A stretch of DNA of 64,000 nucleotides from Natronoarchaeum philippinense. GTDB lineage: Archaea > Halobacteriota > Halobacteria > Halobacteriales > Natronoarchaeaceae. The number at the start of each line of letters is the position of its first letter. Within the stretch, counting starts at the first letter, position 1. This document shows, in pieces, positions 30,497-53,001 of the stretch. The notes under the pieces were generated by a model. It searched no databases. It saw only the letters and a list, made by a program, of their open reading frames with translations, and was not told where the DNA came from. The stretch spans positions 248,001-312,000 of the forward strand of contig NZ_OBEJ01000001.1 of NCBI RefSeq assembly GCF_900215575.1, written 5' to 3'. Both the position numbers and the translations under genes were made by a program.

Positions 30497-33400
30497 ATGA
30501 AGGACCCCGTCGCCAGCGCGGAACAAATGCAAGCCGCATACCACGACTACTTTATCGGTCGTGGTGGACGGGCTGCGCGTAGCGTCGCTAATCGCCTGGC
30601 GGACGGCGAGGACGACATCACGGGGATGCGCGGCCCCTACCTTCAGGCACTCGACATCCCGAACTGGAGCGGCCGTTCGTGGGACGCGTTCGCCAGGTCG
30701 GCACGTCTCGAGCCGCATATCCGCCGGGCTTTCTCGAAGATCGGCTTCGAACGACTCTACGACTTCCAGGAGCGTAGTATCGAGGCCATTCTTGAGGGAG
30801 ATGATACTGTCATTACTGCCGCGACGGGACGAGGAAAAACTGAAGCGTGGCTCATTCCCATCCTCAACCGCATCCTCGAAGACAAACGGCATGGTGACGG
30901 GGGTGACGATACGAGCGTCAAGGCCACGCTCATCTATCCGACGAAGGCGCTCGCACAGGACCAGTTGAAGCGCCTCCTCCAGTACCTCTACCTCATCAAT
31001 AACCACCTACGGTCGGAACAACAGATTACCGTCGGTATTTACGACGGTGATACCCCGCGGAATGTCGGCGAATCAGGCTCCGAAGGGTACCTCAATGCGA
31101 CCTTCCGTCACTTCGAGTGCCCTGGGTACAATGACGAACTCGACAAATGCCAAGACTGCGGTGGTGGTGTTCGGATCCGAAACACCGGCGCTCGGTTCAA
31201 ACTCATCCCAGAGAAAGCGCACTGTGAAGACGATGATCCGCACGACGTTCCGCTCGATTTCCTGCGGCTAACGAAGAACGACATCCTCGAGAACGGTGTT
31301 GACATCCTGCTCACCAACCCGGACACGATCAACTACCGACTCATCAACACTAACGCCGAAGACGAACACGAGCGGTTCGTCTACGAACCCGAGTTCCTCG
31401 TCTTCGACGAGGTCCACACCTACGACGGCCTGTTCGGGAGCTACACGTCGACGCTGATGAAGCGAATCCAGTCGCTCCGCGAGGAACGCGGCCTCGACGA
31501 CTTACAACTCGTCGCGAGCAGTGCGACCGTCGAGAACGACGTCGAGTTGTTCCAGAAGGTTAGCGGTGCCGTCGACGTCAAACAGGTGAGTGAGTCACCA
31601 CGCAACCTCGATGGGGACGCTCCGGACGAGATTCCGGAAGAGCTAACGTCGAACAGTCTGTCCGTCGACCGCATTCTGCGTGCGACGGCCGCGCCGGACG
31701 ACGTTGTTCCGGGCCTCGATGCGTTCGACTACACGCTGGAGGATGCATCGAGTTACGACCGTGACCGTCGGGAGACGCTAGTGAGTGACGCTCTCTTCGA
31801 CCATCTCACCGAGGTCGAGGATGACCTCGGCGCACAGGTCGTTCGCTACGTCCACCAGTTGCTGTACGACGAGCCGCTCACACGGTCCCAGCTACACGAC
31901 GAGTTAGCGACGACGCTGAATCTCGACACCGATGAAGCATCGAAACTGGTGTCGAACGTCCGGACCCTCGGTGAGTTTTCCGGTATGCTGGAGAACCGAA
32001 GTCACGTGTTCTCTTGGCCGATCGACGGCTTCTATACGTGTCCATCGTGTGACGCAACGTACCGCTCCCCACAGGACGACTGTAACGAGTGTGGATTCGA
32101 CTTCGTCACGCGCTCTACCTACTGCCGACACTGTAGCGACGAACACCTTGTCGGATGGTACTGTCCAGGCTGCGACCAACTAGAGCCGTACACGCCGACC
32201 GAACACGGGACGATCGACCAAGACGAGGAACACGTCTGCCGCCGATGTGAGGAAGCGCGCGACGATGTCGTCCAGATGGTTCGTACGACGTTCCAGCCGT
32301 TCCTCGAGTGCCTCGACTGTGGACACCGAACCGAGCGAACGACGACCCGTGACTGTCCCGAGTGTGGTTCCAAGACCGTCAGGACCGACGATGAGACGTT
32401 CACCTGCGTTAATCCGAAGTGTGAGTCGGCTCACGAGATTGAACGAGTCTGCGACAGCTGTGACGGGACCGACTTCGGACTAGCTACTGTTGCGAGTCGG
32501 TTCGATTGTCCAGAATGTGGCGCAACTTACGAAGACCCCGAGCAGGCCCCTGACCAGTGTGTCGACTGTGGTTCCTCACTCACCTCGACGAGGTTTCTTC
32601 CCTGGGTCTGTGGGAGCGACGATTGTAGTCGGGTCCTCTTCGATGATTCCCCCAATCAATGCGACTGTGGCTCATCGTCGTTCGTAAAGCGCGGACTCTT
32701 CGAGATTCACGACGACCAACACTGTCGTTCGTGTGAGACGGCATTCCTCGGCGACGAGGGTTGCAACTGTGACGATCCGGACATCCATCCGCGGACCGGT
32801 CACCATCAGGCCTACAAGACGATCGACACCAGGGGGTGGATTCACACGATGAGTTCGCAGCCGTCGGCTGTCCCGTGCCCGCATCCGTATGCCCGGTACG
32901 AGATTGACCGCCGGTTCGACGAACTGATGCGAGGTCCGAGCAACCTCGCGGTGACCACCTCGCAGTACATGTTGCGCCGCGTCGCCGACAAGGAGGGCCA
33001 ACAGGCGGCGAAGCTCCTGTCGTTCGCTGACTCTCATCGTGACATGAAGGAGCTCAGTCGTGACTTCTCGGAACCAGAGGTCGAGACCCTTCTTGATCAA
33101 CTGTTAATCGAAAGTGCATCGTCCCGAAATGACGGGAACGACTGGACACCGTTTAATCAAGTCCTCGAGGACGCGGCGAACATCGTCGGCGAGGTAAACG
33201 ATGCACTGGAACCGCCGCGAGTCACAAGGAGTGTCGAGTTTGACCTGAAGTCACGATTGAAAGATCAGCCCCGAAAGCGCTGGGACGACGATGACGCGCT
33301 TCGGGATCGACTCACCCGACGCGCACTCGAACACACCTACAGCCAGCGTTTGGGCGAGCGGGATGGCTCCCTCACCGAAGAAGGACTGCTCGATGTCCGC

Positions 33401-36025: not shown

Positions 36026-36051
36026 CCAACATCCCACACAAATTGCCACCG

Positions 36052-39000
36052 ATGGATTTCGACCCACTCGAACTCGCGAACTCGATGCGCGAATCGTACG
36101 CTGAACACTACGCCGGCTCCCAACCACAGCGAGCCGTCAAGAACCTCGTCTCGCGGTACCACGACGGGTCTGGCGAGTCACTGGAGGAGGACCTTCCTGA
36201 GTTCATCCGGACGAAAGGCCCCTTCCTCCAGGTGCTGGACCTTCCACGGATGAGCGACACCTCTTGGGAGACGTTCGCCAGTAACCAGGGCCTCCACGAC
36301 GATGTCACCGAAACGTTCTCTGAGGCCGGGTTCCGATCCCTGTATGAATTTCAGGAGTCAGCGGTCGAATCGGTTCTCGAGGACCACCACACGCTCCTGA
36401 CCGCAAGTACGGGTCGGGGAAAGACCGAGGGATGGCTCATCCCTATCCTTCAGTTCATTACTGAGGCAAAAGCGGGTCAGCACGGCGACCATCCACCAGA
36501 CAGCGTCAAGTGCGTCCTCACATACCCGACAAAAGCACTCGCACAGGACCAGTTGAAGCGATTGATCGACTACCTCTTCACGCTCAATCGAGATCGGTCG
36601 TCGGACGAGCAAGTGACCGTTGGTATCTACGACGGTGACACTAAGCGTCGCGACCCCGACGAACTCGCGTACCTCCAGACCACGTTCCAATACTTCGACT
36701 GCCCGTGCGACGAGTGTGATTCGTCGCTGACGGTTAGGCAGCGTGACGACGACTCGTTCGTCGTCGAACCGATGGTGGAACACGAGGACGACCTCACGTT
36801 CGATTTCATCAAGGTCACTCGTGACGCCATCGTCGAATCGCCAGCGGACATCCTGTTGACGAACCCAGACACGATCAACTACAGGCTCTTCAACGTCAAC
36901 GGTGACGAGGAACAGCAGCGCTTCGTCGCCGAGCCGAAATACTTCGTGTTCGATGAGATCCACGAGTATTCCGAACTCTTCGGTTCGTTCACGTCGACGC
37001 TCATGCGCCGGTATATTCGAGAGCGGCAGGAACTCAACGGGTACGAGAGTGAGGCAGACGACGATCTCACCATCGTCGGTGCGTCGGCGACCGTGGAGAA
37101 CAAACGGACGGTCTTCCAGCGCATCAATCCGTTCGTCGACCCTGACATCGAAGTTGTCGAAGAAGACGAGCGTACCCTCGACGCACCGTTCCCCGTCGAC
37201 ATCCCCGACGAATTTGTTTCGGCAGAAATGAGCGAAGAGGAGTTACGTGCCGGGGACACCGATGCCGCGAGGCAAGCACTTGACGCCGCTGCCGTAAAGG
37301 ATGGTAGTGAGGACGTTGATGATGCGCTCTACGAACATTTAGTCGAGGACGAAGGTGGGCCCCTTGAGTTCGTCCGCGGGATCTACGCGGCGCTCCGTGA
37401 GACCCCACTTCGGCCAGTCGGTCTTCGGGGCCGCCTGATCGACGAGGCTGGGCTTTCTGAGTCCCAGGCGGAGACAGTCGTAGCGAACTTCATGACTATC
37501 GGCGAGGTGTCGGGCATTCTCGAGCGCCGCGCCCACTTGTTCAGCTGGCCGCTCGACGGTTACTACACGTGTATTAACTGTGGGACAGTCTACGACACCC
37601 CGCAGTCGTCCTGTACTGAGTGCGGCCACCACTTCGTGACGAAACTCTCGTTGTGTAACGAGTGTGGTGAAGAGTCGCTTGAATCGTGGTTCTGTCCAAA
37701 CTGTGAGCGCCTCGCACCTCATACCGTCACGTCGGAAGAAGGCCGTTTCGAGTATTTCCAACGGAGAGAATGTCAGTGTGAGACCATCGACGGCGAAACA
37801 CCGGAGATGGTTCGAGTTTACTGGCGACCGTACTACGAGTGTACGGACTGTGGCGAGCGTCAGAAGATTGACCATCAGCATGACTGTCCCGACTGCGACG
37901 CCTCGATGGTCCTCGACGATTCGATGGAGAAGCACGTTTGCACCAACCCAGACTGTGACGGCGAACTCACGGTCGAGGAAGCACGGGAACCCGAATGTCA
38001 TTCCTGCCGTTCCACTGCGTTAGAGCCGCTTGCAGACGAAGATGTTCAGTATTGCACCGAGTGTGGAGAAGTCTATGAAGATCCGGAGGGTCAGGAGTGC
38101 ACTACGGACGACTGTGACGGCGAACTCACGCCCAAACGGTTCCTCGGATGGACGTGCAGCGACCCCGGGTGCGACGAAGTGTATTTCGGTAATCCACCCG
38201 CGTCGTGCAGTTGCAATAAACGGAAACTCGTTCGATCCGCGCTGTTCGACATCAACATGGTCGACGAGTGTCAGTCCTGCGGGCACGAGTTCCTTCCTAA
38301 CGGTCCACACAACTGCAACTGCGACGATCCCGAGATTAGCCGCCGGGCGAAGGGCTACGGGAACTTTCGGATGGTAGACGATAACGGACGAATCAGGGAA
38401 GCGAGTAACTTCTCCGGCGGACTGCCGTGTTACCACGAAGATCGGCGAGAAACCTACGCGAAGAACCGGCGATACGACTCGATGCTCCGTGGTCCGGCCA
38501 ATGCTGCTGTGACGAGCGGGCGCTATTTGTTGCGTTCACTGGCAGATCGCGACGATCCCAGTACCTTCGGAGAATCGAAGATGCTCTCGTTCGCGGACAG
38601 CCAGTCCGACATGAAGGAACTCGAGCGGAACTTCCGCGAACCCGAAGAGTCGTTCTTCTTCGACCAGTTGTTCGTAGATAGCGTCAGCTCGGAGGCCGAC
38701 GAATCGGGTTGGGCAACACTGTCCGACGTCGTGGAGTGCGGAGTAGACGATGCACACCAGTACGAAGGGCAATTAGTCGGTAAGGACGGTAACGCCCCGC
38801 AGATGTACGAACATCTGACCGGCTACGACCAGTCGGTCGACGAATACCTGACAGAAGAATTGCTATCTCGCGTCTTTGAAGGTAAGTACAGTCAGCGTTA
38901 CCGCAGTAGCCAGCTTAGCGACGAGGGGCTGGTCGACGTTCGGCTGGACGCCGGACTTGACGAGCTCAGCGAGGGCGAGCGTGAGTTACTCGTAGAGGCA

Positions 39001-41502
39001 ATCGGTCAGAACCACCATTATGAGCCGAATCTGGTGGACGAGCTCGAGAACGGACACGACCATCTCGACTCCCTCGTCGATCGCGGTATTCTACGTCGCA
39101 TCGAAGAGGAGGGGAGTCGGTTCGTCATGGTCGACGAAGATGCGGTCGAATGTGCGGTCGTCGACAACGTGACGCCGACGAACTACAGTCCGAGCCAAGA
39201 GGAATACGCGACCTCGCTCGAAGTCACTCTAGGGCTCGCACCGGATGATGTCATCGAGTTCGGAACGACGATAGAGGACCGGTCGGAGTTCTCTCACTCC
39301 CACTACTCCCTGACTGCTCAACAGGTTTCGACGTCCGACCCGATGATGTTGCTCGCGCGGGCATACTACGGTGAGACCGATCGCGACGAGCGGCGAAAAC
39401 TGGAGTACCAGTTCCGACAGGGGCGGTATCCACACTTCCTCTCGTCCGGGCCGGCGATGGAGTTAGGTGTCGACATCGGCGACCTCAACACGCTCCTCCT
39501 GTACGGGACCCCGCCGAACGCCAACTCGTACCTTCAGCGAATCGGACGTGCGGGTCGGGCTTCGGGCAATTCCCTCATTCACTCGGTCAGCCAGCGGAAC
39601 CCCATCGATTACTACTACCACGAACACCCAGAGGAACTCATCGCGGCCGACCCCCAGCAGGTTCCGCTCAACGAGGTGAACCACGAAGTGCTCCACCAGT
39701 CGCTTTCGTGGGCCGTCCTCGACTGGGCTGCGACGACCCGATGGGTCCCATGGCGCCGCGAACAGAGCGGTCTCGAAGACCTCATCGTCTGTGGCAACGA
39801 GCCAGTACCGCGAACGGAGCCCCGACCGAACGACGTGATGACGTTCACCGGGGTGCTTTCGTCCACGAACTTCCAAGTCCAGAGTTGGAACGATGATGCT
39901 CCGCTCGAAGCACTTCGAAGACTCCTCGACGAGAACCGGGATGAAATCGAGCGGTGGTTGGAGGACCTCCTGTCGTTCAGCGTTTGTTCAGCGTGTGGCC
40001 GAAAGCACGCCGCTGGCTACGGCGGGGAGTGTCAGCGTAACGACTGTGACGGTGTCGTCGAGTCGGTTCTCGATAAGCATGGGGACATCGTCGAAGGGAT
40101 CCTCGCCGGAACCGAGGACAAACAGAGCTTCGAAGAGACTATCGTCGATCTCTATCGCGACCAGCAAGACGACATCTACGACGACATCGATGAACTTGAC
40201 GAGGAAGTAAGCGATCTACGGCGAGAAGAACGGAATACTCGCGACCGCGACGAAAAGCGCCGCCTACGAGAACAGCGAGAGCAGGTCGAGCGTCAACTCG
40301 ACCAACTGAACGACTATCTCGACCGACTCGAGGACATGGACTTCGGTAGCTATCTGAACCGGGAGAGTCCTGCTGCGTTCGGATTGCGGTCGGTTGGTAG
40401 CTCGGTCGATTACCAACTCGTCGGTGAAGACTTCGAGCACGTCAGCGACGGGTCACGCGAGCGCCGCATCGCTCTCTCTGAACTCCATCCTGGCGCTGCG
40501 TATCTCTACGACAGCGAGACCTACGTCGTGACACAGGTGTACTGGGAGCCGCTGGAATCCGCACGCATCACTGACGACCTCGAAGATGCGGCTATTTGTC
40601 CGACGTGTGCTTCCGAGTACGATAGCGACACTTCCAACTGCGAGTCGTGCGGGACGCGACTGAAGCCGCTCGTCACTCAGGTCCCGGAGCGAGTGATCGC
40701 ATATCAGCACGATCTCCCGCTCAGTTCGACGCCGAGTACCCAGCAACTTCAACCCTCGACGGTCTACCAGAACGATACGGAACCCCAGAGCACGTACGCT
40801 CCCGTCGAAACCGATGCCGGCGATTCGTTCGAGGCGACGTTCTCCCGGGACATCGTCGACGAAAACGGGACCGTCCACGGACAGTTCGAGTACGGAGACG
40901 TCACGCTACTCGCCTCGACGAGCAAATACTGGGCGACCTACAAGGACGGTGGAGCAGACCCGTTACCGAACGTGTTTGAGATGTGCGGTGTCGACGGATG
41001 TAACGGAGCAATCGCGAAAACCGGAGACTCGGCATACTGTACGAACAACGTCGAACATCCCGTCGATGAGAGCGAGGCTGTCCGGCCCGCAACGAAGTTC
41101 TCTACGAAGGCGGCCCGGGTACGCTTCGACAGCGAAGAACTCGAACACGGCTTCGCTCACGGCCTCCGAGTCGCACTCCAGTACATCGGCGGCGTTAGCG
41201 TCAGGCAGGTTCCAGAATCCATCGAGGACGAAGGAACACTAGTCTACGATTCCGACGAAGGCGGAAGCGGCATCACCGTGCTGCTAACTCAAGATGACGG
41301 AGAGAAATTCGAACGCGCCGTCGAACTCATGCGTGAGGCGTTTTCACCGGACGAGTCGAAGTGTAACTGCGAGAACGGATGTCCGTTCTGCCTCTACCAG
41401 TATGGGTGTGTAGAGCAGAACGACCCCGAATCGTTTGCAAAGGACGAACTGCTAGACCTGCTATCTCACGAGCTTCACCTCGAACCGAGGAACGATGAGT
41501 AA
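36052..41502 (+). CDS. Giant SF2 helicase with zinc-ribbon array and DUF1998-type end (second copy)
   Basis: This is a paralogue of the preceding gene, 1816 residues from the ATG at 36052 (a TTG at 36043 is less likely). Motifs are conserved and apparently active: TASTGRGKTEGW near 117-128, DEIH at 301-304, SAT near 345, MELGVDIG at 1136-1143, QRIGRAGR at 1162-1169, a zinc-knuckle array at about 507-753, and CNCENGCPFCLYQYGC near 1771. The two proteins are alike across their whole length but far from identical, so the duplication is old. Both copies keep all catalytic motifs, which argues for a heteromeric machine. The stop overlaps the start of the PLD gene by eight bases. Confidence 0.8.
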   Translation: MDFDPLELANSMRESYAEHYAGSQPQRAVKNLVSRYHDGSGESLEEDLPEFIRTKGPFLQVLDLPRMSDTSWETFASNQGLHDDVTETFSEAGFRSLYEFQESAVESVLEDHHTLLTASTGRGKTEGWLIPILQFITEAKAGQHGDHPPDSVKCVLTYPTKALAQDQLKRLIDYLFTLNRDRSSDEQVTVGIYDGDTKRRDPDELAYLQTTFQYFDCPCDECDSSLTVRQRDDDSFVVEPMVEHEDDLTFDFIKVTRDAIVESPADILLTNPDTINYRLFNVNGDEEQQRFVAEPKYFVFDEIHEYSELFGSFTSTLMRRYIRERQELNGYESEADDDLTIVGASATVENKRTVFQRINPFVDPDIEVVEEDERTLDAPFPVDIPDEFVSAEMSEEELRAGDTDAARQALDAAAVKDGSEDVDDALYEHLVEDEGGPLEFVRGIYAALRETPLRPVGLRGRLIDEAGLSESQAETVVANFMTIGEVSGILERRAHLFSWPLDGYYTCINCGTVYDTPQSSCTECGHHFVTKLSLCNECGEESLESWFCPNCERLAPHTVTSEEGRFEYFQRRECQCETIDGETPEMVRVYWRPYYECTDCGERQKIDHQHDCPDCDASMVLDDSMEKHVCTNPDCDGELTVEEAREPECHSCRSTALEPLADEDVQYCTECGEVYEDPEGQECTTDDCDGELTPKRFLGWTCSDPGCDEVYFGNPPASCSCNKRKLVRSALFDINMVDECQSCGHEFLPNGPHNCNCDDPEISRRAKGYGNFRMVDDNGRIREASNFSGGLPCYHEDRRETYAKNRRYDSMLRGPANAAVTSGRYLLRSLADRDDPSTFGESKMLSFADSQSDMKELERNFREPEESFFFDQLFVDSVSSEADESGWATLSDVVECGVDDAHQYEGQLVGKDGNAPQMYEHLTGYDQSVDEYLTEELLSRVFEGKYSQRYRSSQLSDEGLVDVRLDAGLDELSEGERELLVEAIGQNHHYEPNLVDELENGHDHLDSLVDRGILRRIEEEGSRFVMVDEDAVECAVVDNVTPTNYSPSQEEYATSLEVTLGLAPDDVIEFGTTIEDRSEFSHSHYSLTAQQVSTSDPMMLLARAYYGETDRDERRKLEYQFRQGRYPHFLSSGPAMELGVDIGDLNTLLLYGTPPNANSYLQRIGRAGRASGNSLIHSVSQRNPIDYYYHEHPEELIAADPQQVPLNEVNHEVLHQSLSWAVLDWAATTRWVPWRREQSGLEDLIVCGNEPVPRTEPRPNDVMTFTGVLSSTNFQVQSWNDDAPLEALRRLLDENRDEIERWLEDLLSFSVCSACGRKHAAGYGGECQRNDCDGVVESVLDKHGDIVEGILAGTEDKQSFEETIVDLYRDQQDDIYDDIDELDEEVSDLRREERNTRDRDEKRRLREQREQVERQLDQLNDYLDRLEDMDFGSYLNRESPAAFGLRSVGSSVDYQLVGEDFEHVSDGSRERRIALSELHPGAAYLYDSETYVVTQVYWEPLESARITDDLEDAAICPTCASEYDSDTSNCESCGTRLKPLVTQVPERVIAYQHDLPLSSTPSTQQLQPSTVYQNDTEPQSTYAPVETDAGDSFEATFSRDIVDENGTVHGQFEYGDVTLLASTSKYWATYKDGGADPLPNVFEMCGVDGCNGAIAKTGDSAYCTNNVEHPVDESEAVRPATKFSTKAARVRFDSEELEHGFAHGLRVALQYIGGVSVRQVPESIEDEGTLVYDSDEGGSGITVLLTQDDGEKFERAVELMREAFSPDESKCNCENGCPFCLYQYGCVEQNDPESFAKDELLDLLSHELHLEPRNDE

Positions 41503-43471
41503 TCCACTCAACGCCGCGAACGAACTCCGAACGCAGTCACCTGAGCGCCTCTGGGCGCTTTCAGCGGAGAGCGTGTACTCTGCACTCGCCGCAACAGCAA
41601 CTGGGGAGCCCATACAGGAACGCCTCGAACCGCATGTTCGGACTGAAATTATCAGAACGAATGACGAACGAGGCCGCGATCCCGTCGTCTCGATACACGA
41701 GTGGCTGCTCGACGAACTCGGTCTCGTCGACAACGGCACCATTTCGCTACTGGGAATGGTAGTGCTAATCTCGGACGAGCCACAGCCGTTCATCCGAACA
41801 GCTACTGTCGCTCGGCTTCAGCCAGCTGAGATGGTGCTTCGCTCGTGCAACGAAATCGAGGAGGATAACGTCCCGAGACGCGAACTCGACAGCCTGCTCG
41901 CCGACGAGTGGGATGAAACCGTTCTTGCTCCCCTCTTAGGGTCGCTCGGGTTCATGACGATCTATCCCGATAGCGTCAACCTCAATCGAGAACGGATCGA
42001 CAGTTCGCTGTCGGCCCAGCAGACAATGTCTACCGAGACAGTTGTTGCAGAAGCCTATCGCGACATCCTCTCTCGCGTCGTCGAATCTGCGGACGCAGCC
42101 TGTCTAGAAGACCTCGTGCAGCGATTAATTGGAACAACTCCGACGAAGGGAGAACTGGAGGTGGCCGAGGTAGCAAACCTCGCCAGTACGCAAGCGATCA
42201 CAGTCGATGAAACGGAAGTCGAAGACGCAGTCCGTAACCAGCGGCAGGAATACGAGGACGAATTCGACCAAGTGCGATCACTGCTGGTGCCATCAACTGA
42301 GGCCGACTTAGAGAGGGTCAACACGGACCAGTCGGTCGGACTCGACGATGTATCGGAAGATGCGGATCTTAGCGCTGATGAACGGGAGGCAGCTCTCAAA
42401 GTCGTCGCCACTGTTGCGGCATACCCCGTTCTGGCGACGTTCGACGTGCACTTCGTTACTGAGCGGTGGCCGAGCGTAACGCCGTACTCTCTCTACCAAG
42501 CACTTTCATCAGTTCCGGGAGTCGAGTGTGAGGTCAGCGACGGCCTCGTCGAATTTGAGACCGTGCCAGAAGCTGTCGATGTCGAGGCTGTACGAGACGA
42601 ATATACGAAACACCTCGTGGAACGCTGTTCGGACATTCAGAGTCGCATCGACACCCTCTCTCAAGAGACGGTGTCATTCCCACCTGACCCCGTCGCGACC
42701 GAGTCGATGGTGGTTCAGGACTACGAGTCGATCGACAGCGGGGCGATCGCACCGACCTACTTCACCTACACGCTCGTCGATCCGGACGCTCTCGGAGAGC
42801 AAAAGATGGACGCCTACGTCGGAGATTCACGTGGACTCGGTAGAGAACGGGCACGTCTCCGCCGCTGGCATGAGAGGCGCTCGTCGGGACTGAAACCGTA
42901 CACTGCAATGACCGACCGCTTGTTCAGCCTCGGCCTCGAGCGCGACATAGAGGACAAGGTTTTGCGCATCATGACACCGTTCGACGACGACACGTTCAAC
43001 GAGTACGTGGCCCAAATTCGTCGTCTTCTCGAACATGGCTTCGAGCTTCGTTTGCTCACTCGCCATACGAAGGAACCCTGGGAGTGGCGGCGGCTTCAAC
43101 GAAACCTGCTGAGCGAGATCAAAGAACATCGTGATCGAGTGACGGTGCGTTCCTATTCGCGGTTCAAGGAACACCAGCGTGTGACGCCCGATATGGACTT
43201 CCGCGATCTCAATGAAATCGGGATTCATGGCAAACTCCAGACGGTCGGTGCACCGGAGGAAGGGGCAGCACTCCTCGGGTCTGCGAACTTCATGGAGAAC
43301 AGTTACGACTGGAACCCCGAATGTGGGATCTACACCGAACGAACGCAGTTTGTTGATGCCGCAGTCGAATTCTTCGACATCGTATGGGACATCTCGGCGG
43401 CTGACGAATTATCGATTGAGCGCTTGCAAGAGATTCCCGATCACCAGCTAGTACCAACGTACTATAGCTAG
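41495..43471 (+). CDS. PLD-family (HxK) nuclease, DrmC/DpdK-like
   Basis: The 658-residue protein ends in a phospholipase-D-type domain. It shows VLRIMTPFDDDTFNEYV and ELRLLTRHTKEPWEW, then GIHGKLQTVG (His and Lys of the HxK motif near 577-579) and GAALLGSANFMEN near 590-602. Only one HxK motif is present, so an active enzyme would dimerise. The N-terminal 400 residues are helical and unrecognised, with a possible winged helix near 320-360. It is translationally coupled to the second helicase. PLD nucleases close both DISARM (DrmC) and Dpd (DpdK) gene sets. It is the most likely nuclease of the operon. Confidence 0.75.
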   Translation: MSNPLNAANELRTQSPERLWALSAESVYSALAATATGEPIQERLEPHVRTEIIRTNDERGRDPVVSIHEWLLDELGLVDNGTISLLGMVVLISDEPQPFIRTATVARLQPAEMVLRSCNEIEEDNVPRRELDSLLADEWDETVLAPLLGSLGFMTIYPDSVNLNRERIDSSLSAQQTMSTETVVAEAYRDILSRVVESADAACLEDLVQRLIGTTPTKGELEVAEVANLASTQAITVDETEVEDAVRNQRQEYEDEFDQVRSLLVPSTEADLERVNTDQSVGLDDVSEDADLSADEREAALKVVATVAAYPVLATFDVHFVTERWPSVTPYSLYQALSSVPGVECEVSDGLVEFETVPEAVDVEAVRDEYTKHLVERCSDIQSRIDTLSQETVSFPPDPVATESMVVQDYESIDSGAIAPTYFTYTLVDPDALGEQKMDAYVGDSRGLGRERARLRRWHERRSSGLKPYTAMTDRLFSLGLERDIEDKVLRIMTPFDDDTFNEYVAQIRRLLEHGFELRLLTRHTKEPWEWRRLQRNLLSEIKEHRDRVTVRSYSRFKEHQRVTPDMDFRDLNEIGIHGKLQTVGAPEEGAALLGSANFMENSYDWNPECGIYTERTQFVDAAVEFFDIVWDISAADELSIERLQEIPDHQLVPTYYS

Positions 43472-46915: not shown

Positions 46916-49819
46916 GTGAGATTTTACGTTCCTGAGTGGGACGACGCGGTCGATTCCCACTACGATTTCCGACACGACGAACTCTCTACTCTCGACCGTC
47001 AGGAGCGGGATCTAGATTACATCTGGGATATTTTCGAGCGCGACACAACCCCGATCGATGGCGTGCTAATTTCGCGTGAACAAGTTGAAGAGACGACTCG
47101 CAAAGCAAATCGTCTCGCCGAGTACGGGGTCTACGATGACCCGGTGTTGTCCGTTCCAGAATGGCTTCCTACGATCAGCGACTGCGGCGCGTGGGGCTAC
47201 AAGTCACTCCCGTTCCCTCCGTACGGGAACGCCGAGATGCTTGACTTCTACGAAACGCTGGAGGTCACAGTCGGCGTTACTATCGATCACCTCGTTTTGG
47301 GTTCGGGGAAAGACAAGGGTCGTCTGTACCTCGACGAACGCGCCTTCCATACCGATTTCAAGAAGAGTGACATCCCAGACGCACTGACTGACGTCGTCGA
47401 TTTGATGGTCGACGAGTGGCCCAACGAATGGCCTACTTACGTCGAGGAGTACGAACCGTCCATCTGTACTCAATCGAAGAAGGAGGTCGAGGCCTTTGCT
47501 CCAGAAGACTTCCAAGGCGACGTCGATACGGTACTTGCGCGATTGGCTCGTGATCCCAGAGCGGTGTACCGAGAGGACGACGCAGCATTCCGCTACGAGC
47601 TTACTCTCCGGAACGCTCAGGAGATGTACGACCTGTACCACCGAGGTAACTACCCGTTCCGGCTAATGGTAGCGATCCAGGGCTGGAACCCCGAGACGTA
47701 TATCGAGGCCACGGAAGAAGTGCTCGACATTGGATACGATTATCTCGGTATCGGTGGCGTCGCTGGCAGTCCCATCCACGACGTCAGGCAAATCGTGAAG
47801 GGCGTCGGAAAGACTGTAAAGGAGTTTGAACGCGAGAATAACACTCGCATTGACTCGCACGTCTTCGGGTTTGCGAAGAGCGAAGGATTCGAGACGGTCG
47901 GTCGATCGGGGATGACCAGTTTCGATAGTGCGAGTATGCTCCGTTCGGCATGGACAGGAGGGCAGAATTACCGGCTTGACAACAACGAGCGATACGACGC
48001 GATTCGGGTTCGTTACCCATCTAACCGCGATTCTCTTGCAGAGGCCGTGGAGAAGTCCCTTCGAGGCCGCGAGACGCTAGTTGCGTTGAGAGCCTTCGAT
48101 TCTGAGGAACCCATCGTTGACGCGCTCTATGAGTGGGAGAAGAAAGCAGAAAAGGTCCTTCCAGCCACTCGAGAATATCTACGTGAACACCGTCACGACG
48201 AGCAATACGACGCTTCGCTACTCCAAGAAGTCGAAACCGCTTTTAGAGACGATTTCGAGTACGCCCGAGAGCTCCAAGCGAGCTTCAGCGACAATCTTCG
48301 AGGAAAGCTGGTCAAACTTCTTCGGAAAGACGATCCCGAAGACCCGGTTAGCTTCGAAGAGTATTCTGATTTACTAACCGTCGCACAGCAAGAGTTCGAG
48401 CCTTTCCCGCGTATGACTACCATCCTTGAAAACGACGATCCTGAAACTACTTATGACGCGATTTGGACCGTCGTTCGAGATTACGCGACGTGGATCGGCG
48501 ACGAAGACCTCTTAGAAGAGTACCAGCGTACACTGCAAAACCGACCTTGGGAGAAGTGCGATTGCTCGATCTGTACCGAGAACAGTATCGAGGTCTGTAT
48601 CTTCCGTGGTAACGACCGCAACCGTCGACGTGGATTCCATAACACCCGACGGTTCTACGACGAGTTCACCGACGAGCTACCGAAAATCCTCATCGGAATT
48701 CGAGGTACGGCATCTCTGAACGGCTACGAAACTATCGAGGACTACCTTCGAGCCGAGCATCCAGACTTCTGGCAGCAGGTGCATGATCTCCCAGTTGCCG
48801 AAGTTGGCGTTTTGGATGCCGGCGGTGTACGGGAATGGTGGGACGAGACCCCCACCGGCGTTTCGCTTGCCCGGAGTCGCATGGCTGAAAACCTTGGCCA
48901 GCAAGCAGAGCGATACCAGAAGGTGTTCCTCCACACACCTGACGGAGAAATCGACGAGCACATCGTAGATGCCGTGGAAGAAAGCAACTGCACAATCCAG
49001 ACGTTCCAAGATCCATCGAAACTGCGCCAGAATGCTTTGGAAGCGTGCGGAGAGAATTACATAGCTGGGGATGACTTCCTGCCTCACCCACCCAAAATCA
49101 ACGTCCAGGATGGGCTCGACATTTTGGTTATCGACCAATGTTCTGGCTCGAAGGACATCCCCGAAGGTGCACCCGTCTTCGATGATAAAGAGACGCTCCA
49201 ATTCTCGAGAGAAGAGCTCTTGGAGCGCGATAATGTTCCCGGAATCAACGCCAAGGATCTCTACACGGGCCGACAGCAGGAGTTCGTGAAGGAAGCGGTT
49301 AGACGGCTCAAAGGAGAAGGTCACGATGTCGAGCGGTACTTCATAAGTGCAGGCTTCGGCCTCGTTTCCGAGGACGAACCGTTGCCGCCATATGAAGTGA
49401 CGTTCAGTTCGATGGGCGTTGCCGACATCAGGGAGCGATCTAAACAACTCAGCATTCAGGCCGACTTAGAGCAGGTGCTGAACGAGTCAGACTACGATGT
49501 AGTCTTCTTCACTCTCGGGAAGGATTACTACACCAGCATTGACATCGATAATATGGTCCAGAACGTTCGTTCTGACCGTATTGGAGTCGTCTTCAACCGG
49601 GAACTCGTCGACGACCAGTTCGATAATATCGTGTCAGTGCCTGCCCGCACAGAAGACGCGAAAAACCACGGCACAATCGTAGTAGGGTTGAAAGGACACT
49701 ATATGAAGAATTTCGCACACCGTATAGACAGTGTCGAATCACTGGAACCTGAAGCGATTGAGGGCCTCTGTCGTCGTGTAGAAGAGGAACCTACTCAGAT
49801 GGCCTTCGAGAAGTATTAG
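46916..49819 (+). CDS. Long TGT-like enzyme with YaaA/DUF6884-like C-terminus (DpdA-related)
   Basis: The 967-residue protein (GTG start; a stop lies just upstream in frame) has a tRNA-guanine-transglycosylase-like part over residues 1-580. SDCGAWGY at 88-95 stands where TGTs have DSGGF (Asp89 as base), TSFDSASMLRSAW gives a nucleophile at Asp337, and CDCSIC (548-553) with His575 forms the zinc site. A large helical insert lies at about 370-540. The C-terminal domain (about 735-967) has DQCSGSKDIPEGAP and YFISAGFGLVSEDEPL, as in YaaA/DUF6884 proteins. Such enzymes swap guanine for 7-deazaguanines. The shape fits DpdA-type DNA enzymes better than ArcTGT. Confidence 0.7.
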   Translation: MRFYVPEWDDAVDSHYDFRHDELSTLDRQERDLDYIWDIFERDTTPIDGVLISREQVEETTRKANRLAEYGVYDDPVLSVPEWLPTISDCGAWGYKSLPFPPYGNAEMLDFYETLEVTVGVTIDHLVLGSGKDKGRLYLDERAFHTDFKKSDIPDALTDVVDLMVDEWPNEWPTYVEEYEPSICTQSKKEVEAFAPEDFQGDVDTVLARLARDPRAVYREDDAAFRYELTLRNAQEMYDLYHRGNYPFRLMVAIQGWNPETYIEATEEVLDIGYDYLGIGGVAGSPIHDVRQIVKGVGKTVKEFERENNTRIDSHVFGFAKSEGFETVGRSGMTSFDSASMLRSAWTGGQNYRLDNNERYDAIRVRYPSNRDSLAEAVEKSLRGRETLVALRAFDSEEPIVDALYEWEKKAEKVLPATREYLREHRHDEQYDASLLQEVETAFRDDFEYARELQASFSDNLRGKLVKLLRKDDPEDPVSFEEYSDLLTVAQQEFEPFPRMTTILENDDPETTYDAIWTVVRDYATWIGDEDLLEEYQRTLQNRPWEKCDCSICTENSIEVCIFRGNDRNRRRGFHNTRRFYDEFTDELPKILIGIRGTASLNGYETIEDYLRAEHPDFWQQVHDLPVAEVGVLDAGGVREWWDETPTGVSLARSRMAENLGQQAERYQKVFLHTPDGEIDEHIVDAVEESNCTIQTFQDPSKLRQNALEACGENYIAGDDFLPHPPKINVQDGLDILVIDQCSGSKDIPEGAPVFDDKETLQFSREELLERDNVPGINAKDLYTGRQQEFVKEAVRRLKGEGHDVERYFISAGFGLVSEDEPLPPYEVTFSSMGVADIRERSKQLSIQADLEQVLNESDYDVVFFTLGKDYYTSIDIDNMVQNVRSDRIGVVFNRELVDDQFDNIVSVPARTEDAKNHGTIVVGLKGHYMKNFAHRIDSVESLEPEAIEGLCRRVEEEPTQMAFEKY

Positions 49820-49916: not shown

Positions 49917-50951
49917 ATGCTGTACAGACAACGGAAACTCGATCTTCCCCACGGAGAACTGGATACACCAGTTCTCTTCCCAGTTAGGAACGTGGGGAAG
50001 CGATCGAGTGATAACACTCCCAAGTACGTCGGCACTATCCCGGAGTTTTCCGCGGCGATGATTAACGCTCGATCGATACGGAACCGGGACCCGATGTGGA
50101 ATCGGCTAACGAATGGTGTGACCCTCCGCGAAGAGATGGATGTTCCAGAGGATACCATCATCTTCGCTGATAGCGGTGGATTCGATTTTTCTGAGCAGGA
50201 GATCGACACTACACCGAAAAAGACGATCAAAACTCAACGGAAATTAGATAGCGACATACACGGAACAATTGACATTCCTTTATCCAGAGAAAACCGTGCA
50301 GCAGAGAACCAACGGCGTATCGACCGAAGCATCGAGTTTGCTCTCGAAGCAAGTGATCTCCATACTGGTGATGCTCTTCTCTTTGCAAGCGTTCACGGGT
50401 ACGATCCAGAAACGATTCGTAACAATATCCAGTACCTGGAGAACCACGGAGATTTTGACGGATACGCACTCGGGAGTATGGTCCCAATCCGGACGGACTA
50501 CAAAAAGGTAACAAAGCTGGTACTGGCTGCAAGAAATGCGACAAAGAAGCATCTACACGTTTATGGGCTCGGTGGATTAGTCTATCAGCCACTTTTACTT
50601 TATCTCGGTGTCGATAGTTTTGACTCGTCGGCGTTCATCAGAAGTGCCGGCAATCGTAACTACTTGATACCTGGTTTTGGAGGGGAGGAGCTCCACAACA
50701 TCGAGGACTTGGATCGGTTGCCTTGCCCCTGTCCGATCTGTGGGCAACGGAGTTTAGAAGACATCCGGGAAGATCGAACCGCGCTCACTCAACATAATCT
50801 CTGGGCGCTTGCAACGGAGCTTCGGCGATTCAAATACATAGCTGAGTCCGATCGAGACGTCGAGAATTATCTCGATCTTCGGTTCCAGGGCAACGAAGTC
50901 ACTAAGAGAGCCTATGAAACCGCAAAACAGCAAGTGAGGAGGCTCACATGA
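49917..50951 (+). CDS. Short TGT-fold enzyme (DpdA-like base exchange)
   Basis: The 344-residue protein keeps the transglycosylase core: ADSGGFDF at 84-91 (Asp85 as base), YALGSMVPIR at 183-192, HVYGLGG and GVDSFDSSAF at 231-240 with nucleophile candidates Asp233/Asp236. The zinc site is C270, C272, C275 and H293 (CPCPICG, then TQHNLWAL). It lacks the PUA and C-terminal domains that ArcTGT uses to bind tRNA, so tRNA is an unlikely substrate. A GGAGG lies five bases before the ATG. It overlaps the next gene by ATGA. It probably inserts preQ0 or a relative into DNA. Confidence 0.75.
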   Translation: MLYRQRKLDLPHGELDTPVLFPVRNVGKRSSDNTPKYVGTIPEFSAAMINARSIRNRDPMWNRLTNGVTLREEMDVPEDTIIFADSGGFDFSEQEIDTTPKKTIKTQRKLDSDIHGTIDIPLSRENRAAENQRRIDRSIEFALEASDLHTGDALLFASVHGYDPETIRNNIQYLENHGDFDGYALGSMVPIRTDYKKVTKLVLAARNATKKHLHVYGLGGLVYQPLLLYLGVDSFDSSAFIRSAGNRNYLIPGFGGEELHNIEDLDRLPCPCPICGQRSLEDIREDRTALTQHNLWALATELRRFKYIAESDRDVENYLDLRFQGNEVTKRAYETAKQQVRRLT

Positions 50952-51844
50952 GTGACGAACGAGCGACGATCCGTCCAGTCACACTGAGCCGTCTGGTCGA
51001 ACTCACACACGCCTGTGCAGACGACGAGAAAACGACAGAGGATCTCGAGACTGCCCTCGATGTAAGTCATCGGCGAGCGCGAGAAACAGTCCTAGAAGCG
51101 AAACGGATCGATCTTCTGGACGAACGCGAGTCAGATGATGTTTCCTTTTACGAGACCACTGCTATCGGTGAAGCATTCTTAGAGGCGATTCAAGATGAGG
51201 ACTGGCAGCAAGTGAGTTCAATCCTCGCGACTCGTAGCCCTCACTACGGAGCATTTCTCGAGGTTCTGGAGCAGATCGAACCGACAGACCTCGATGCCCT
51301 TCTGGAGAGCCTGGAAGAAGACCAGAAGTATACACCCTATTCGTTCAACCAGACCGGCATAGAGGTCGTCGGTGACTGGGCTGAGCGATTAGGTCGCGTT
51401 CAGCGGAATGCCTTCACTGGGAGCTACTATTTGACCAGCCACTCTAGCATTCCGGATAACTTCCCTTTCGTGGTGCTTGACGCTTATGACAACCTCGAAC
51501 AGACGGCTGGCATAGATTTGCGACAGCGCTATCTGTCGATACCGCAACTTCGGGAAGAAGTCTGTGAACGAGTTGGATGTTCACGTGAGGGTTTCGACGA
51601 GGCGCTGGTCGCTCTTTGCCAGCAGAACGTCGGCAAGCTCGAGCTGTCGGGAGCCCCGATGGATACGGAGGCTAAAGATTCTGCTCTCGGGATAAAGCAA
51701 ATTTCCTTGGCAGATGAGGGAACGTTGGTCTCCACGTCGCAATCAACACAGCAGGTGATGTCTGGCGTCGAATTGTACGACAAACAATACTACTACCTCG
51801 CGGTCCACGACCGCGACGTCACGTTCCACCAGGAGGATACATAA
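50948..51844 (+). CDS. Winged-helix protein of the transglycosylase operon
   Basis: The 298-residue protein begins with a winged helix (about 10-75: EDLETALDVSHRRARETVL then LDERESDDVSFYETT). Helical segments and a second winged-helix-like unit follow near 200-250 (SIPQLREEVCERVGCSREGF). Its C-terminal strand pair (GVELYDKQYYYLAVHDRDV) is unrecognised. It overlaps the transglycosylase before it and the ATPase after it, so the three are made together. A DNA-binding adaptor for the ATPase is the simplest reading. I know no named homologue. Confidence 0.6.
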   Translation: MSDERATIRPVTLSRLVELTHACADDEKTTEDLETALDVSHRRARETVLEAKRIDLLDERESDDVSFYETTAIGEAFLEAIQDEDWQQVSSILATRSPHYGAFLEVLEQIEPTDLDALLESLEEDQKYTPYSFNQTGIEVVGDWAERLGRVQRNAFTGSYYLTSHSSIPDNFPFVVLDAYDNLEQTAGIDLRQRYLSIPQLREEVCERVGCSREGFDEALVALCQQNVGKLELSGAPMDTEAKDSALGIKQISLADEGTLVSTSQSTQQVMSGVELYDKQYYYLAVHDRDVTFHQEDT

Positions 51845-53001
51845 TGTCCGACGCATTCGACATTTCAGACGAACAGCAAGACTACTCACAGTACGGTCTC
51901 GAGGCCAATCCGTTTCCGTACAGTCCGGTTCCCGCAGAGGACCCCGAAATATACTGTGGTCAACAGCACGTCTCCGAAAAGATTAGTTCCACAGTCTCTA
52001 CGATGCTTTCGACTGGAAAGTCCAAGCATCTCGTTATTACTGGGAAATACGGCAACGGAAAGTCGCATACGCTCAAATATACCCGCTCGCTGTTACGGGA
52101 CCGGGACGATGTCGTCGTTGGGTACGTTGCTCAACCGGGCGAAGGCTTTCTCGACATCTATCATGAGTTCGTGTACGACCTAGGTTTCAATCGAGTCCAA
52201 GAGTTGGCCTACGAGTACCTCGCCTCGGTTGCTCGTGACGTCACAGATGCGAATCCAATTAGCGCGAGCGCAATGAAATCGCTCATCGATGAGGGAGAAA
52301 TCCTTCTCTCTGAGATCGTCCCGGAGGCAGTTCGACGATTAAGCGATGTGACTCACTTTGCCGACTTTGCTCGTGCGATCGTACACATGGTGTACGAAGA
52401 CACCAACCTCTATGCTTGGCAGTGGTTGACCGCAGAGGGTATCCGGTATGAGCAGCGCAAGGAGATGGAGATCCACAGCGCACTCGATGACGATACGATG
52501 GGCGTCCGGGCGTTTACCGCTTTCAAGAATATGCTACTCGAGCTCGGTTATACTGGCGTATTCGTTTTCGTCGACGAGTTCGAGAGTATCGCCCGTCTCA
52601 GCCCAAAAAACGAGCAGGCTACGCTCAACAGTATTCGACACCTGATGGACCAGAATAGTTCCGGGCTGTGTATGTTGTTTGGCTGTGCTCCCGAAGTCTG
52701 GCAAGACGTCATGAGTGAGTATCATGCTTTTAGCGAGCGAATCGGAGAGGAGGTCGCTCTGAAACCCCTCACAAACGAGCATCTGAACGATCTGGTATCA
52801 GACTACCTCAGCCGAGAGCGCAATGGGCCAAACGAAGATTCTTCAATAGACCCGTTTACTGATGAAGCGTTGGACGTGATTCTACAACGTTCTCAGGGTA
52901 ACGTTCGCCAGGCCCTGGCTATCTGTAGCCGCGTGCTGGACTCTGCTATTGAGGAAAGCCGAGAGCAGGTCACACCTGAATTCGTTCAAGAATCGATGTG
53001 A
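51844..53001 (+). CDS. AAA-type ATPase, BrxD/DUF2791-like
   Basis: The 385-residue protein has an ANPFPYSPVP lead-in, Walker A GKYGNGKS (67-74), Walker B VFVFVDEFE near 239-247 and a sensor-2-like GNVRQALAICSRVLDSA near 350-366. The fold resembles Orc/Cdc6- and TniB-like ATPases and the BREX protein BrxD (DUF2791 family). It follows a winged-helix gene with a one-base overlap. Clamp loading or target scanning for the modification enzymes is plausible but inferred. It lacks the C-terminal winged helix of true Orc1/Cdc6. Confidence 0.6.
   Translation: MSDAFDISDEQQDYSQYGLEANPFPYSPVPAEDPEIYCGQQHVSEKISSTVSTMLSTGKSKHLVITGKYGNGKSHTLKYTRSLLRDRDDVVVGYVAQPGEGFLDIYHEFVYDLGFNRVQELAYEYLASVARDVTDANPISASAMKSLIDEGEILLSEIVPEAVRRLSDVTHFADFARAIVHMVYEDTNLYAWQWLTAEGIRYEQRKEMEIHSALDDDTMGVRAFTAFKNMLLELGYTGVFVFVDEFESIARLSPKNEQATLNSIRHLMDQNSSGLCMLFGCAPEVWQDVMSEYHAFSERIGEEVALKPLTNEHLNDLVSDYLSRERNGPNEDSSIDPFTDEALDVILQRSQGNVRQALAICSRVLDSAIEESREQVTPEFVQESM

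What the first reader, a model, noticed from the sequence alone, without database searches (positions are those of the whole stretch)
50948..53001. Winged-helix and BrxD-like ATPase pair attached to base-exchange enzymes
A 298-aa winged-helix protein and a 385-aa AAA ATPase overlap each other and the short transglycosylase. Such a pair recalls BrxB/BrxD-like or TniB-like DNA-scanning modules, so modification may be ATP-driven and targeted, unlike simple Dpd.
Basis: inference. Interest (0 to 1): 0.55.

Follow-up and report, generated by a model that had tools for sequence, protein, structure and literature searches.

The report
ATP motor unit beside DNA base-swapping enzymes
Salt-loving archaea carry a bacterial-type DNA-marking and defence system in which the usual helper protein is missing and a DNA-binding protein plus a ring-type ATPase are locked to a second base-swapping enzyme instead, which could explain how such enzymes reach bases inside double-stranded DNA.

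Summary
The two genes are real. A winged-helix (WH) protein (50948-51844) and an AAA+ ATPase (51844-53001) overlap each other and a short transglycosylase (TGT). With a DpdA-DUF6884 fusion (46916-49819) they form the modification half of a divergent archaeal Dpd island; the restriction half (24721-43471) follows the bacterial G-H-I-J-K order.

TGT, WH and ATPase are contiguous in 54 of 58 other loci, and in one genome sharing only the phylum. Of 391 class genomes 58 have the ATPase; 39 have the restriction gene DpdH, always with the ATPase; 19 have the ATPase without DpdH, though 3 of these show divergent restriction-like genes nearby. So the pair belongs to modification. DpdB is over its cut-off in 0 of 58.

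Models show an ORC/TnsC-type ATPase and tandem winged helices. Best reading: an ATP-driven DNA-opening unit in place of DpdB. In 4 of 8 other TGT loci inspected, a short TGT adjoins an unrelated ATPase (SF2 helicases, GHKL).

Family BrxC/BrxD, not shown to be BREX. New variant of a known kind.

The parts
46916..49819 (+). DpdA (TGT fold, residues 1-~590) fused to a C-terminal DUF6884/DpdC-like domain (~735-940), 967 aa
   Evidence: NCBIfam DpdA 274.5 bits, cut-off 200; PF21818 DUF6884 31.6, cut-off 30; PADLOC DpdC 1.4e-7; catalytic Asp and CxCxxC..H kept; the two parts match as separate open frames in 20 genomes, one of them decayed
49917..50951 (+). second, short TGT, 344 aa, archaeosine-TGT catalytic domain without the C-terminal part
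   Evidence: PF01702 98.4 bits; TIGR00432 143 bits, below cut-off 350; D85, D233, D236 and C270, C272, C275, H293 invariant in 18 of 18; aligns to residues 23-326 of 582 in 1iq8
50948..51844 (+). tandem winged-helix protein, 298 aa
   Evidence: AlphaFold2 pLDDT 88.7; MarR-type wH, Z 11.6 for residues 12-85, and cullin wH, Z 10.3 for 97-164; basic residues enriched among invariant ones, 11 of 46 against 14 of 252
51844..53001 (+). ORC/Cdc6-TnsC-type AAA+ ATPase of the BrxC/BrxD family, 385 aa
   Evidence: PF10923 62.7 bits, cut-off 22.2; Walker A YGNGKSH in 35 of 35, D244 E245 and R355 invariant; model pLDDT 89.7, A. pernix ORC2 Z 19.1, TnsC Z 15.4
24721..25656 (+). 311-aa protein, first gene of the restriction half
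   Evidence: no family hit; homologue at the head of the module in 11 of the 58 fetched loci
25653..26582 (+). 309-aa protein at the DpdG position
   Evidence: position and length only (for the bacterial order); no family hit above a cut-off
26579..29656 (+). DpdH-like P-loop ATPase, 1025 aa
   Evidence: NCBIfam DpdH 1.6e-11, 43.5 bits, below cut-off 450; 22% over 408 aa to the DpdH-position protein of Paenibacillus, E 5e-10
29658..30494 (+). 278-aa protein at the DpdI position
   Evidence: position and length only
30497..36025 (+). DpdJ-like SF2 helicase 1, 1842 aa
   Evidence: NCBIfam DpdJ 1.1e-31, below cut-off; PADLOC DpdJ 5e-34, DruE 1e-36
36043..41502 (+). DpdJ-like SF2 helicase 2, 1819 aa
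   Evidence: NCBIfam DpdJ 4.5e-23, below cut-off; at E 1e-60 or better in 38 of 61 genomes searched, all DpdH-positive
41495..43471 (+). PLD-like protein at the DpdK position, 658 aa
   Evidence: PF13091 24.7 bits, cut-off 27; 30 of 61 genomes
23700..24401 (-). Csa3-like CARF-HTH regulator that often precedes the restriction half
   Evidence: PF22662 59.6 bits; beside the 311-aa gene in 9 of the 11 fetched loci that hold that gene

Best explanation
The winged-helix protein and the AAA+ ATPase are the ATP-driven, DNA-engaging unit of the modification half of an archaeal Dpd-type (7-deazaguanine) restriction-modification island, and they take the place of DpdB. Proposed mechanism: the ATPase assembles on DNA as ORC- and TnsC-type AAA+ proteins do; the tandem winged-helix protein holds or positions the DNA; ATP binding or turnover distorts the duplex and exposes a guanine. 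The short TGT, alone or paired with DpdA, swaps that guanine for preQ0 made by the host, and the DUF6884 (DpdC-like) part of the DpdA fusion converts dPreQ0 to dADG. The mark protects self DNA from the DpdH/J/K-like restriction half. Shown here: gene coupling, co-occurrence, the window-type restriction half never without the cassette, catalytic motifs kept, folds predicted. Inferred: oligomerisation, DNA opening, chemistry, division of labour between the two TGTs, and the product base.
For: 1. Overlapping triplet in the window, contiguous in 54 of 58 other loci.
2. WH and ATPase co-occur in 57 of 391 genomes. The one ATPase-only and the two WH-only genomes hold fragments.
3. ATPase and DpdA co-occur in 55 of 391, with 3 ATPase-only and 1 DpdA-only, the latter with stops.
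4. Restriction follows modification: DpdH in 39 of 391, all with the ATPase (0 without); 19 have the ATPase without DpdH. Helicase 2 (E 1e-60 or better) is in 38 of 61 genomes searched, exactly the DpdH set minus G003. G003 has no DpdA match, a TGT cut to 51 residues, and of the restriction half only Csa3, 311, 309, DpdH and 110 of 278 aa.
5. ATPase and WH dN/dS of 0.04-0.17 and 0.03-0.09 over four pairs of genomes without restriction genes in sight.
6. DpdB family over cut-off in 0 of 58 ATPase-positive genomes.
7. preQ0 link: queD lies in 29 of 58 fetched stretches (PTPS); the window's genome has QueC, QueD and a separate full-length TgtA.
8. The same triplet, 38/35/41% identical and overlapping, lies about 15 kb from a DpdA-DUF6884 protein in a genome sharing only the phylum.
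9. Elsewhere a short TGT adjoins other ATPases: between two DEAD/DEAH helicases in 2 cyanobacterial plasmids and beside a GHKL ATPase in 2 haloarchaeal plasmids.
10. Folds: ORC2 Z 19.1, TnsC Z 15.4.
Against: No biochemical or DNA-modification data exist for any of these proteins in what I read. [quoted passage not shown] In 3 of the 19 genomes without window-type DpdH the fetched stretch holds a divergent restriction-like gene: DpdJ-like helicases in G061 (E 1e-34) and G131 (E 4e-39), a DpdH-like match in G277 (E 1e-6); farther genes were not checked. The cyanobacterial short TGT lacks the zinc ligands and the Paenibacillus one lacks the DSGG motif, so the second TGT may be structural in some systems. 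In 4 of 8 other TGT loci inspected no dedicated motor adjoins a short TGT (Paenibacillus; Deinococcus, 109; Aulosira, 110, neighbours unannotated; Haloplanus, 111). Two of 58 genomes have a weak DpdB-like gene (43-50 bits, cut-off 300) beside the cassette, and none of the 14 control genomes passed the DpdB cut-off, so that search had no strong positive control. Purifying selection could partly predate loss of restriction genes. Co-occurrence is not corrected for phylogeny or for transfer of whole islands.
Confidence: 0.6

Rival explanations
1. The ATPase and WH serve restriction: they sense unmodified DNA and load the DpdJ-like helicases, as is proposed for BrxD and the BrxHI helicase in type 2 BREX.
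For: BrxD is proposed to load or activate BrxHI (PMC12839542 section 24); the ATPase is BrxC/BrxD-like and the island has two large SF2 helicases. Three of the 19 genomes without window-type DpdH have divergent restriction-like genes near the cassette.
Against: 19 of 58 ATPase-positive genomes have neither window-type DpdH nor helicase 2. Leaving out the three with divergent genes, 16 remain, of which 14 keep full-length WH and DpdA. The pair is contiguous with the TGT in 54 of 58 loci and no restriction gene lies inside the triplet there.
Confidence: 0.15
2. The triplet is an autonomous base-exchange device with its own target (RNA, invader DNA or a specific site), merely kept near DpdA.
For: The triplet is tighter than its bond with DpdA: DpdA is within the fetched stretch in 48 of 58 loci, at times on the opposite strand. 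The short TGT keeps all catalytic residues, so it may act without DpdA.
Against: Genome-wide, a DpdA match accompanies the ATPase in 55 of 58 (partial and 31% in G131); the other three are G003 (TGT cut short), G365 (contig edge) and G380 (ATPase fragment). The short TGT lacks the C-terminal part of the tRNA enzyme 1iq8 and the genome has a separate TgtA.
Confidence: 0.15
3. The pair are regulators or partition proteins of the island (winged-helix regulator plus Orc-like ATPase) that act on gene expression or maintenance, not on modification chemistry.
For: WH residues 12-85 are closest to MarR-type regulators; ORC-type ATPases start replication (recalled); eight plasmid records carry a near-complete copy.
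Against: The strict triplet order with overlapping starts, the co-loss pattern, and unrelated ATPases in the same place beside the short TGT of other systems. Chromosomal copies exist, e.g. L097 and L099 on complete chromosomes.
Confidence: 0.08

Closest known systems
Bacterial Dpd (7-deazaguanine DNA restriction-modification), e.g. dpdA-K on Enterobacter cloacae pPOL9A (L136)
   Same: DpdA above its curated cut-off; a DUF6884 (DpdC-type) domain; restriction half in the order G-H-I-J-K by position, with remote but significant similarity for H and J
   Different: No DpdB (0 of 58 over cut-off); second TGT plus WH plus AAA+ ATPase instead; DpdC-like part fused to the C-terminus of DpdA; two DpdJ-like helicases; PLD protein of 658 aa against 176 aa; DpdD not among the hits listed for the 18 proteins scanned
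BREX type 2 BrxD / type 1 BrxC ATPases (PF10923)
   Same: Pfam family above cut-off (62.7 against 22.2 bits), ORC/Cdc6-type AAA+ fold
   Different: BrxD equivalog cut-off not met (44.4 against 350); operon partners are a winged-helix protein and a TGT, not BrxHI
BREX-Related Capture (BRC) systems with TGT (Rakesh and Krishnan 2026, PMC12839542; passages of section 36 seen)
   Same: A TGT with an NTPase that the authors suggest may substitute for DpdB; preQ0 genes beside a BRC-like locus in Haloplanus
   Different: BRC is built on HerA/FtsK, PglZ, DUF6079 and DUF4007, none listed for the 18 window proteins scanned with Pfam; here DpdA, DUF6884 and a Dpd-type restriction half are present
TnsC / TniB / MuB transposition AAA+ ATPases
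   Same: Fold: TnsC Z 15.4 over 277 residues, MuB Z 14.3
   Different: TniB Pfam score below cut-off; no transposase in the operon
Cyanobacterial dpdA islands with helicase-TGT-helicase (L133, L134)
   Same: Long DpdA fused to DUF6884, a second short TGT overlapping ATP-driven partners, no dpdB annotated in the stretch shown
   Different: Partners are two DEAD/DEAH helicases, DUF6884 is N-terminal, the short TGT lacks the zinc ligands

Membership tests
Dpd system | DpdA transglycosylase | tested here: met
   NF041059 274.5 bits, cut-off 200
Dpd system | DpdB (DGQHR/ParB-like ATPase) | tested here: not met
   NF041060 over cut-off in 0 of 58 ATPase-positive genomes; weak partial hits in 2 of 58; no hit in the window's genome. 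DpdB is said to be dispensable in some Dpd clusters (passage)
Dpd system | DpdC / DUF6884 domain | tested here: met
   PF21818 31.6 bits, cut-off 30, as the C-terminal part of DpdA; DUF6884 equated with dpdC in PMC11888242 (passage)
Dpd system | DpdH and DpdJ restriction proteins | tested here: inconclusive
   Significant but below the equivalog cut-offs: DpdH 43.5 of 450, DpdJ 109.5 of 800
Dpd system | DpdK PLD-like nuclease and DpdG, DpdI | tested here: inconclusive
   PLD 24.7 against cut-off 27; G and I by position and length only
Dpd system | 7-deazaguanine base in DNA | not testable with these tools
   needs LC-MS of DNA
BrxC/BrxD ATPase family (PF10923) | Pfam gathering score | tested here: met
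   62.7 against 22.2 bits; the copy in G508 scores 53.2
BREX BrxD (equivalog) | NCBIfam NF033438 cut-off | tested here: not met
   44.4 against 350 bits
BREX system | PglZ and BREX methyltransferase in the same locus | tested here: inconclusive
   none among the PADLOC hits listed for 18 window proteins (lists capped at 25 for 4 of them); window 1-20000 and the rest of the genome were not searched
TniB | PF05621 gathering score | tested here: not met
   14.3 against 22.4 bits
Archaeosine tRNA TGT (TgtA) | TIGR00432 cut-off and C-terminal part of the tRNA enzyme | tested here: not met
   143 against 350 bits; only residues 23-326 of the 582 in 1iq8 are matched; a separate TgtA scores 637
BRC systems | HerA/FtsK translocase with PglZ, DUF6079, DUF4007 | tested here: inconclusive
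   not among the Pfam hits listed for 18 window proteins; other window ORFs were not scanned

The most novel reading that the evidence does not exclude
Base exchange inside duplex DNA by TGT-fold enzymes rests on a two-TGT enzyme (DpdA plus a short TGT) coupled to an exchangeable ATP motor. Evolution has plugged unrelated motors into the same slot: BrxD-type AAA+ with a tandem winged-helix clamp (archaea), GHKL ATPase (other haloarchaea), paired SF2 helicases (cyanobacteria), and DpdB in the enteric single-TGT form. The motor, not the transglycosylase, would be what opens the helix and sets where the marks go.
Probability: 0.33. Interest if true: 0.8.

Novelty: new variant of a known kind. Interest (0 to 1): 0.6.

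Why it matters
TGT enzymes normally act on a guanine in a tRNA (background knowledge); how DpdA-type enzymes reach a guanine in duplex DNA is not explained by the enzyme itself. A compact TGT-WH-ATPase triplet with all motifs intact gives a defined reconstitution target. Named carriers include Haloarcula vallismortis ATCC 29715 (L096). By equal contig length this is G051, which also holds the restriction half. H. vallismortis is the host species of HVTV-1, a virus with dPreQ1 in its own DNA (PMC6884629, passages seen), so host island and viral counter-modification may be testable in one pair. If the replacement of DpdB is right, searches that require dpdA plus dpdB (as in PMC11888242, which reports eight bacterial phyla; passage) would miss archaeal Dpd islands.

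Tried and rejected
Viral origin: three scans of viral contigs gave no relative and phage records none. The contig scans rest on short peptide patterns, so distant relatives are not excluded.

BrxB or BrxA kinship of the WH protein: no PADLOC, Pfam, NCBIfam or PDB-sequence hit of weight. Foldseek matches to RPC62, SelB, FokI and AlkX/YcaQ have low TM-scores (0.15-0.36 by query length) and E 3e-4 to 0.03; I take them only as 'tandem winged helix'.

RNA element near the operon: no Rfam match in 43400-54100. Tandem array in 43400-45100: none by TRF.

WH or ATPase relatives inside the bacterial Dpd islands inspected: none among 26 bacterial proteins by BLASTP or phmmer. DpdG and DpdI equivalence could not be shown by sequence.

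The genome-contig scan returned 37 loci, all halobacterial by record title; it did not return the copy in G508 that a profile search found (1 of 7 positives among 196 genomes, the other six being of the window's order or its own), so its taxonomic limit is no true limit.

G003: the 388-aa ORF beside its cut TGT looked like a transposase to me, but Pfam gives no family, so I do not claim an insertion sequence.

Mended on checking: I first counted all 19 genomes without DpdH as free of restriction genes; one search shows divergent DpdJ- or DpdH-like genes near the cassette in 3 of them. I therefore dropped one dN/dS pair (L117/L118) and lowered the best explanation from 0.62 to 0.60, raised the restriction rival from 0.13 to 0.15 and lowered the novel case from 0.35 to 0.33. 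BREX and BRC absence moved from 'not met' to 'inconclusive' because hit lists were capped and window 1-20000 was not read.

Not in print: I found no description of an archaeal Dpd island or of this triplet in the searches; the library holds open-licence papers only, and four central papers were not held, so this is weak evidence. PGAP already labels the ATPase 'BREX system ATP-binding domain-containing protein'.
Full report
WHAT IS THERE. The window lies at G000:C1:248001-312000. The ATPase of the finding is 70-98% identical to most of its class homologues, and the 37 named loci found are all halobacterial by record title. The two ORFs are exactly where stated. The TGT stop and WH start share ATGA (50948-50951), the WH stop and ATPase start share TAATG (51842-51846), and each start has a GGAGG-like motif just upstream. 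Upstream lies a 967-aa DpdA (NF041059 274.5 bits, cut-off 200) whose C-terminus is a DUF6884 domain (PF21818 31.6 bits, cut-off 30; PADLOC DpdC 1.4e-7). In 20 genomes, one of them decayed, the two parts match as separate open frames. PMC11888242 (passages) equates DUF6884 with dpdC.

THE SECOND HALF OF THE ISLAND. At 24721-43471 seven co-directional genes encode proteins of 311, 309, 1025, 278, 1842, 1819 and 658 aa. The 1025-aa protein is a remote DpdH (1.6e-11; E 5e-10 to the DpdH-position protein of Paenibacillus). The helicases are remote DpdJ (1.1e-31 and 4.5e-23); helicase 1 also matches DruE (1e-36) and BrxHI (2.7e-30) in PADLOC. The last is PLD-like, below the Pfam cut-off. On Enterobacter pPOL9A the order is dpdG (291 aa), H (1068), an unnamed 282-aa protein, J (1478), K (176). 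The window order 309-1025-278-helicases-PLD is the same, although G and I have no sequence support. H and J score below NCBI's equivalog cut-offs, so this is a divergent relative, not a textbook Dpd.

THE TRIPLET IS A UNIT. Of 391 genomes of the class, 58 have the ATPase, 59 the WH (57 near full length, two fragments), 56 DpdA and 39 DpdH. Overlaps: ATPase and WH 57; ATPase and DpdA 55; ATPase and DpdH 39. No genome has DpdH without the ATPase; 19 have the ATPase without DpdH. Fisher tests for the three give about 1e-39 or less, but shared ancestry and transfer are not corrected for. In the 58 loci fetched from the 57 other positive genomes, TGT, WH and ATPase are contiguous and co-directional in 54; the others are a TGT cut to 51 residues, a second copy with a broken ATPase, a fragment and a contig edge. 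DpdA is within the fetched stretch in 48 and queD in 29 of 58.

RESTRICTION FOLLOWS MODIFICATION. Helicase 2 (E 1e-60 or better) was sought in 61 genomes (58 ATPase-positive, 3 with fragments or decayed parts): 38 have it, exactly the 39 DpdH genomes minus G003. G003 is telling: its TGT is cut short, no DpdA is found, and its restriction half keeps Csa3, 311, 309 and DpdH but only 110 of 278 aa of the next gene, and neither helicase 2 nor PLD. PLD was found in 30 of 61, so it is less constant. Of the 19 genomes without DpdH, a laxer look at the fetched stretches shows divergent genes in three: DpdJ-like helicases in G061 and G131 and a DpdH-like match in G277. That leaves 16, of which 14 keep full-length WH and DpdA; stretches beyond those fetched were not checked for divergent genes. 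In four pairs among them dN/dS is 0.04-0.17 for the ATPase and 0.03-0.09 for WH, though part of that divergence may predate loss of restriction. This is the pattern expected of a modification component.

WHAT THE PROTEINS LOOK LIKE. ATPase: Pfam BrxC_BrxD 62.7 bits; PADLOC BrxD and SngB in 35 of 35 members; Walker A YGNGKSH in 35 of 35; D244, E245 and R355 invariant. The model (pLDDT 89.7) matches A. pernix ORC2 (Z 19.1, rmsd 3.7, 261 aligned), Cdc6/Orc1, TnsC (Z 15.4, rmsd 5.0, 277) and MuB (Z 14.3, rmsd 3.0, 221). WH: model pLDDT 88.7; residues 12-85 resemble MarR-type winged helices (Z 11.6, rmsd 1.5, 74 aligned), 97-164 the cullin winged helix (Z 10.3, rmsd 1.5, 67). A third winged helix around 172-255 is my reading of the secondary structure, not tested alone. 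Invariant residues are rich in Arg and Lys (11 of 46 against 14 of 252) in a protein with 20% Asp plus Glu. Short TGT: catalytic and zinc residues kept in 18 of 18, aligned to 1iq8 over residues 23-326 of 582; the missing C-terminal part serves tRNA binding in the archaeal enzyme (recalled). The genome has its own TgtA (637 bits) with a weaker match beside it, and QueC and QueD elsewhere.

BEYOND THE CLASS. A profile search of 196 genomes of the phylum gave 7 positives, six of them the window's own genome or its order and one, G508, sharing only the phylum. There a 342-aa TGT, 279-aa WH and 393-aa ATPase (38, 35 and 41% identical) overlap in the same order, about 15 kb from a 573-aa DpdA-DUF6884 protein and near helicases that match DpdJ. 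Its ATPase is again PF10923 (53.2 bits). No copy was found in viral contigs or phages. Thirteen plasmid records match, 12 of them haloarchaeal, eight covering 80% or more of the protein.

OTHER PAIRINGS. I inspected eight other loci with DpdA- or TGT-like proteins. In two cyanobacterial plasmids a short TGT lies between and overlaps two DEAD/DEAH helicases, with a DpdA whose DUF6884 part is N-terminal and no dpdB annotated in the stretch shown. In two haloarchaeal plasmids a short TGT abuts or overlaps a GHKL ATPase. A Haloplanus plasmid shows queC-queE-queD beside a TGT, a BrxC/D-type 1363-aa protein and a GNAT, like the BRC systems of PMC12839542 (passages), whose authors suggest an NTPase may substitute for DpdB. 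The other three (Paenibacillus, Deinococcus, Aulosira) show no obvious motor beside a short TGT.

MECHANISM. In bacterial Dpd, insertion of the base is ascribed to the ATPase activity of DpdB, though DpdB may be dispensable in some clusters (passage). Here DpdB is missing (0 of 58 over cut-off; 2 of 58 weak; no control genome over the cut-off), and the ATPase locked to a base-exchange enzyme is this one. The simplest reading is replacement: the AAA+ protein, held on DNA by the winged-helix protein, opens or bends the duplex in an ATP-dependent way so that the TGT pair can exchange a guanine for preQ0, later turned into the amide. Oligomerisation, strand opening, product and site choice are inferred.

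VERDICT. 'Unlike simple Dpd' should read 'in place of DpdB'. It works like a DNA-loading AAA+ unit. By Pfam it belongs to the BrxC/BrxD ATPase family but it fails the BrxD equivalog cut-off, and it sits in a Dpd-like island that lacks one usual Dpd part (DpdB).

Noticed in passing
window 43864-44199: Three 19-nt near-palindromes (TGTGNGCANNNTGCNCACA) at exactly 157-nt spacing, about 15 helical turns, in the AT-rich gap behind the PLD gene; the same three at the same spacing in L031-L034. Function unknown.
   Followed up: partly
window 56794-57621 (-) and 58748-61402 (+): CARF-HTH (HFX_2341-like) protein near a long prokaryotic Argonaute (PADLOC pAgo 1185 bits).
   Followed up: no
window 45762-46757 (-): Endonuclease/exonuclease/phosphatase-family gene divergent from dpdA, matched in L031 and L032 but not in L033 or L034; a gene of the same annotation lies near the TGTs of a Haladaptatus plasmid (L143).
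   Followed up: no
L143 13944-15965, 16679-18643, 24607-27223: Haladaptatus sp. YSMS36 plasmid with three annotated TGTs, one of which carries DUF5591 (an archaeosine-synthase domain, recalled), one abutting a GHKL ATPase, plus DUF6884, PLD-like and helicase genes: possibly another Dpd variant.
   Followed up: partly
L147 6410-18817: Haloplanus sp. HW8-1 plasmid: queC-queE-queD next to a TGT, a BrxC/D-type 1363-aa protein and a GNAT, i.e. a BRC-like locus with its own preQ0 genes.
   Followed up: partly
L129-L132 (G162:C4:122047, G273:C1:843077): Weak DpdB/DGQHR-like gene (open frames 472 and 489 aa) beside the cassette in two genomes of one genus.
   Followed up: no
L031-L034 against the window: ATPase and DpdA are 97-99% identical across genomes of three different families, which points to recent transfer of the cassette.
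   Followed up: no
L101 and L102; L059 and L085: Two copies of the cassette on one plasmid in Halospeciosus flavus (DpdA frames read as 594 and 791 aa) and in G263, where the ATPase of one copy is broken by a stop.
   Followed up: no
window 54201-55435 (-) and 55568-56677 (-): A 126-aa protein with a ParA-like one (by eye, not scanned) and a protein with a sub-threshold CoiA match directly behind the island, kept in L033.
   Followed up: no
L117 16345-18465 (G061), L084 3017-3934 (G131), L062 15251-16783 (G277): Divergent DpdJ- or DpdH-like genes near the cassette in genomes that lack the window-type restriction half: perhaps a second type of restriction half (L062 coordinates as read in that locus).
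   Followed up: partly
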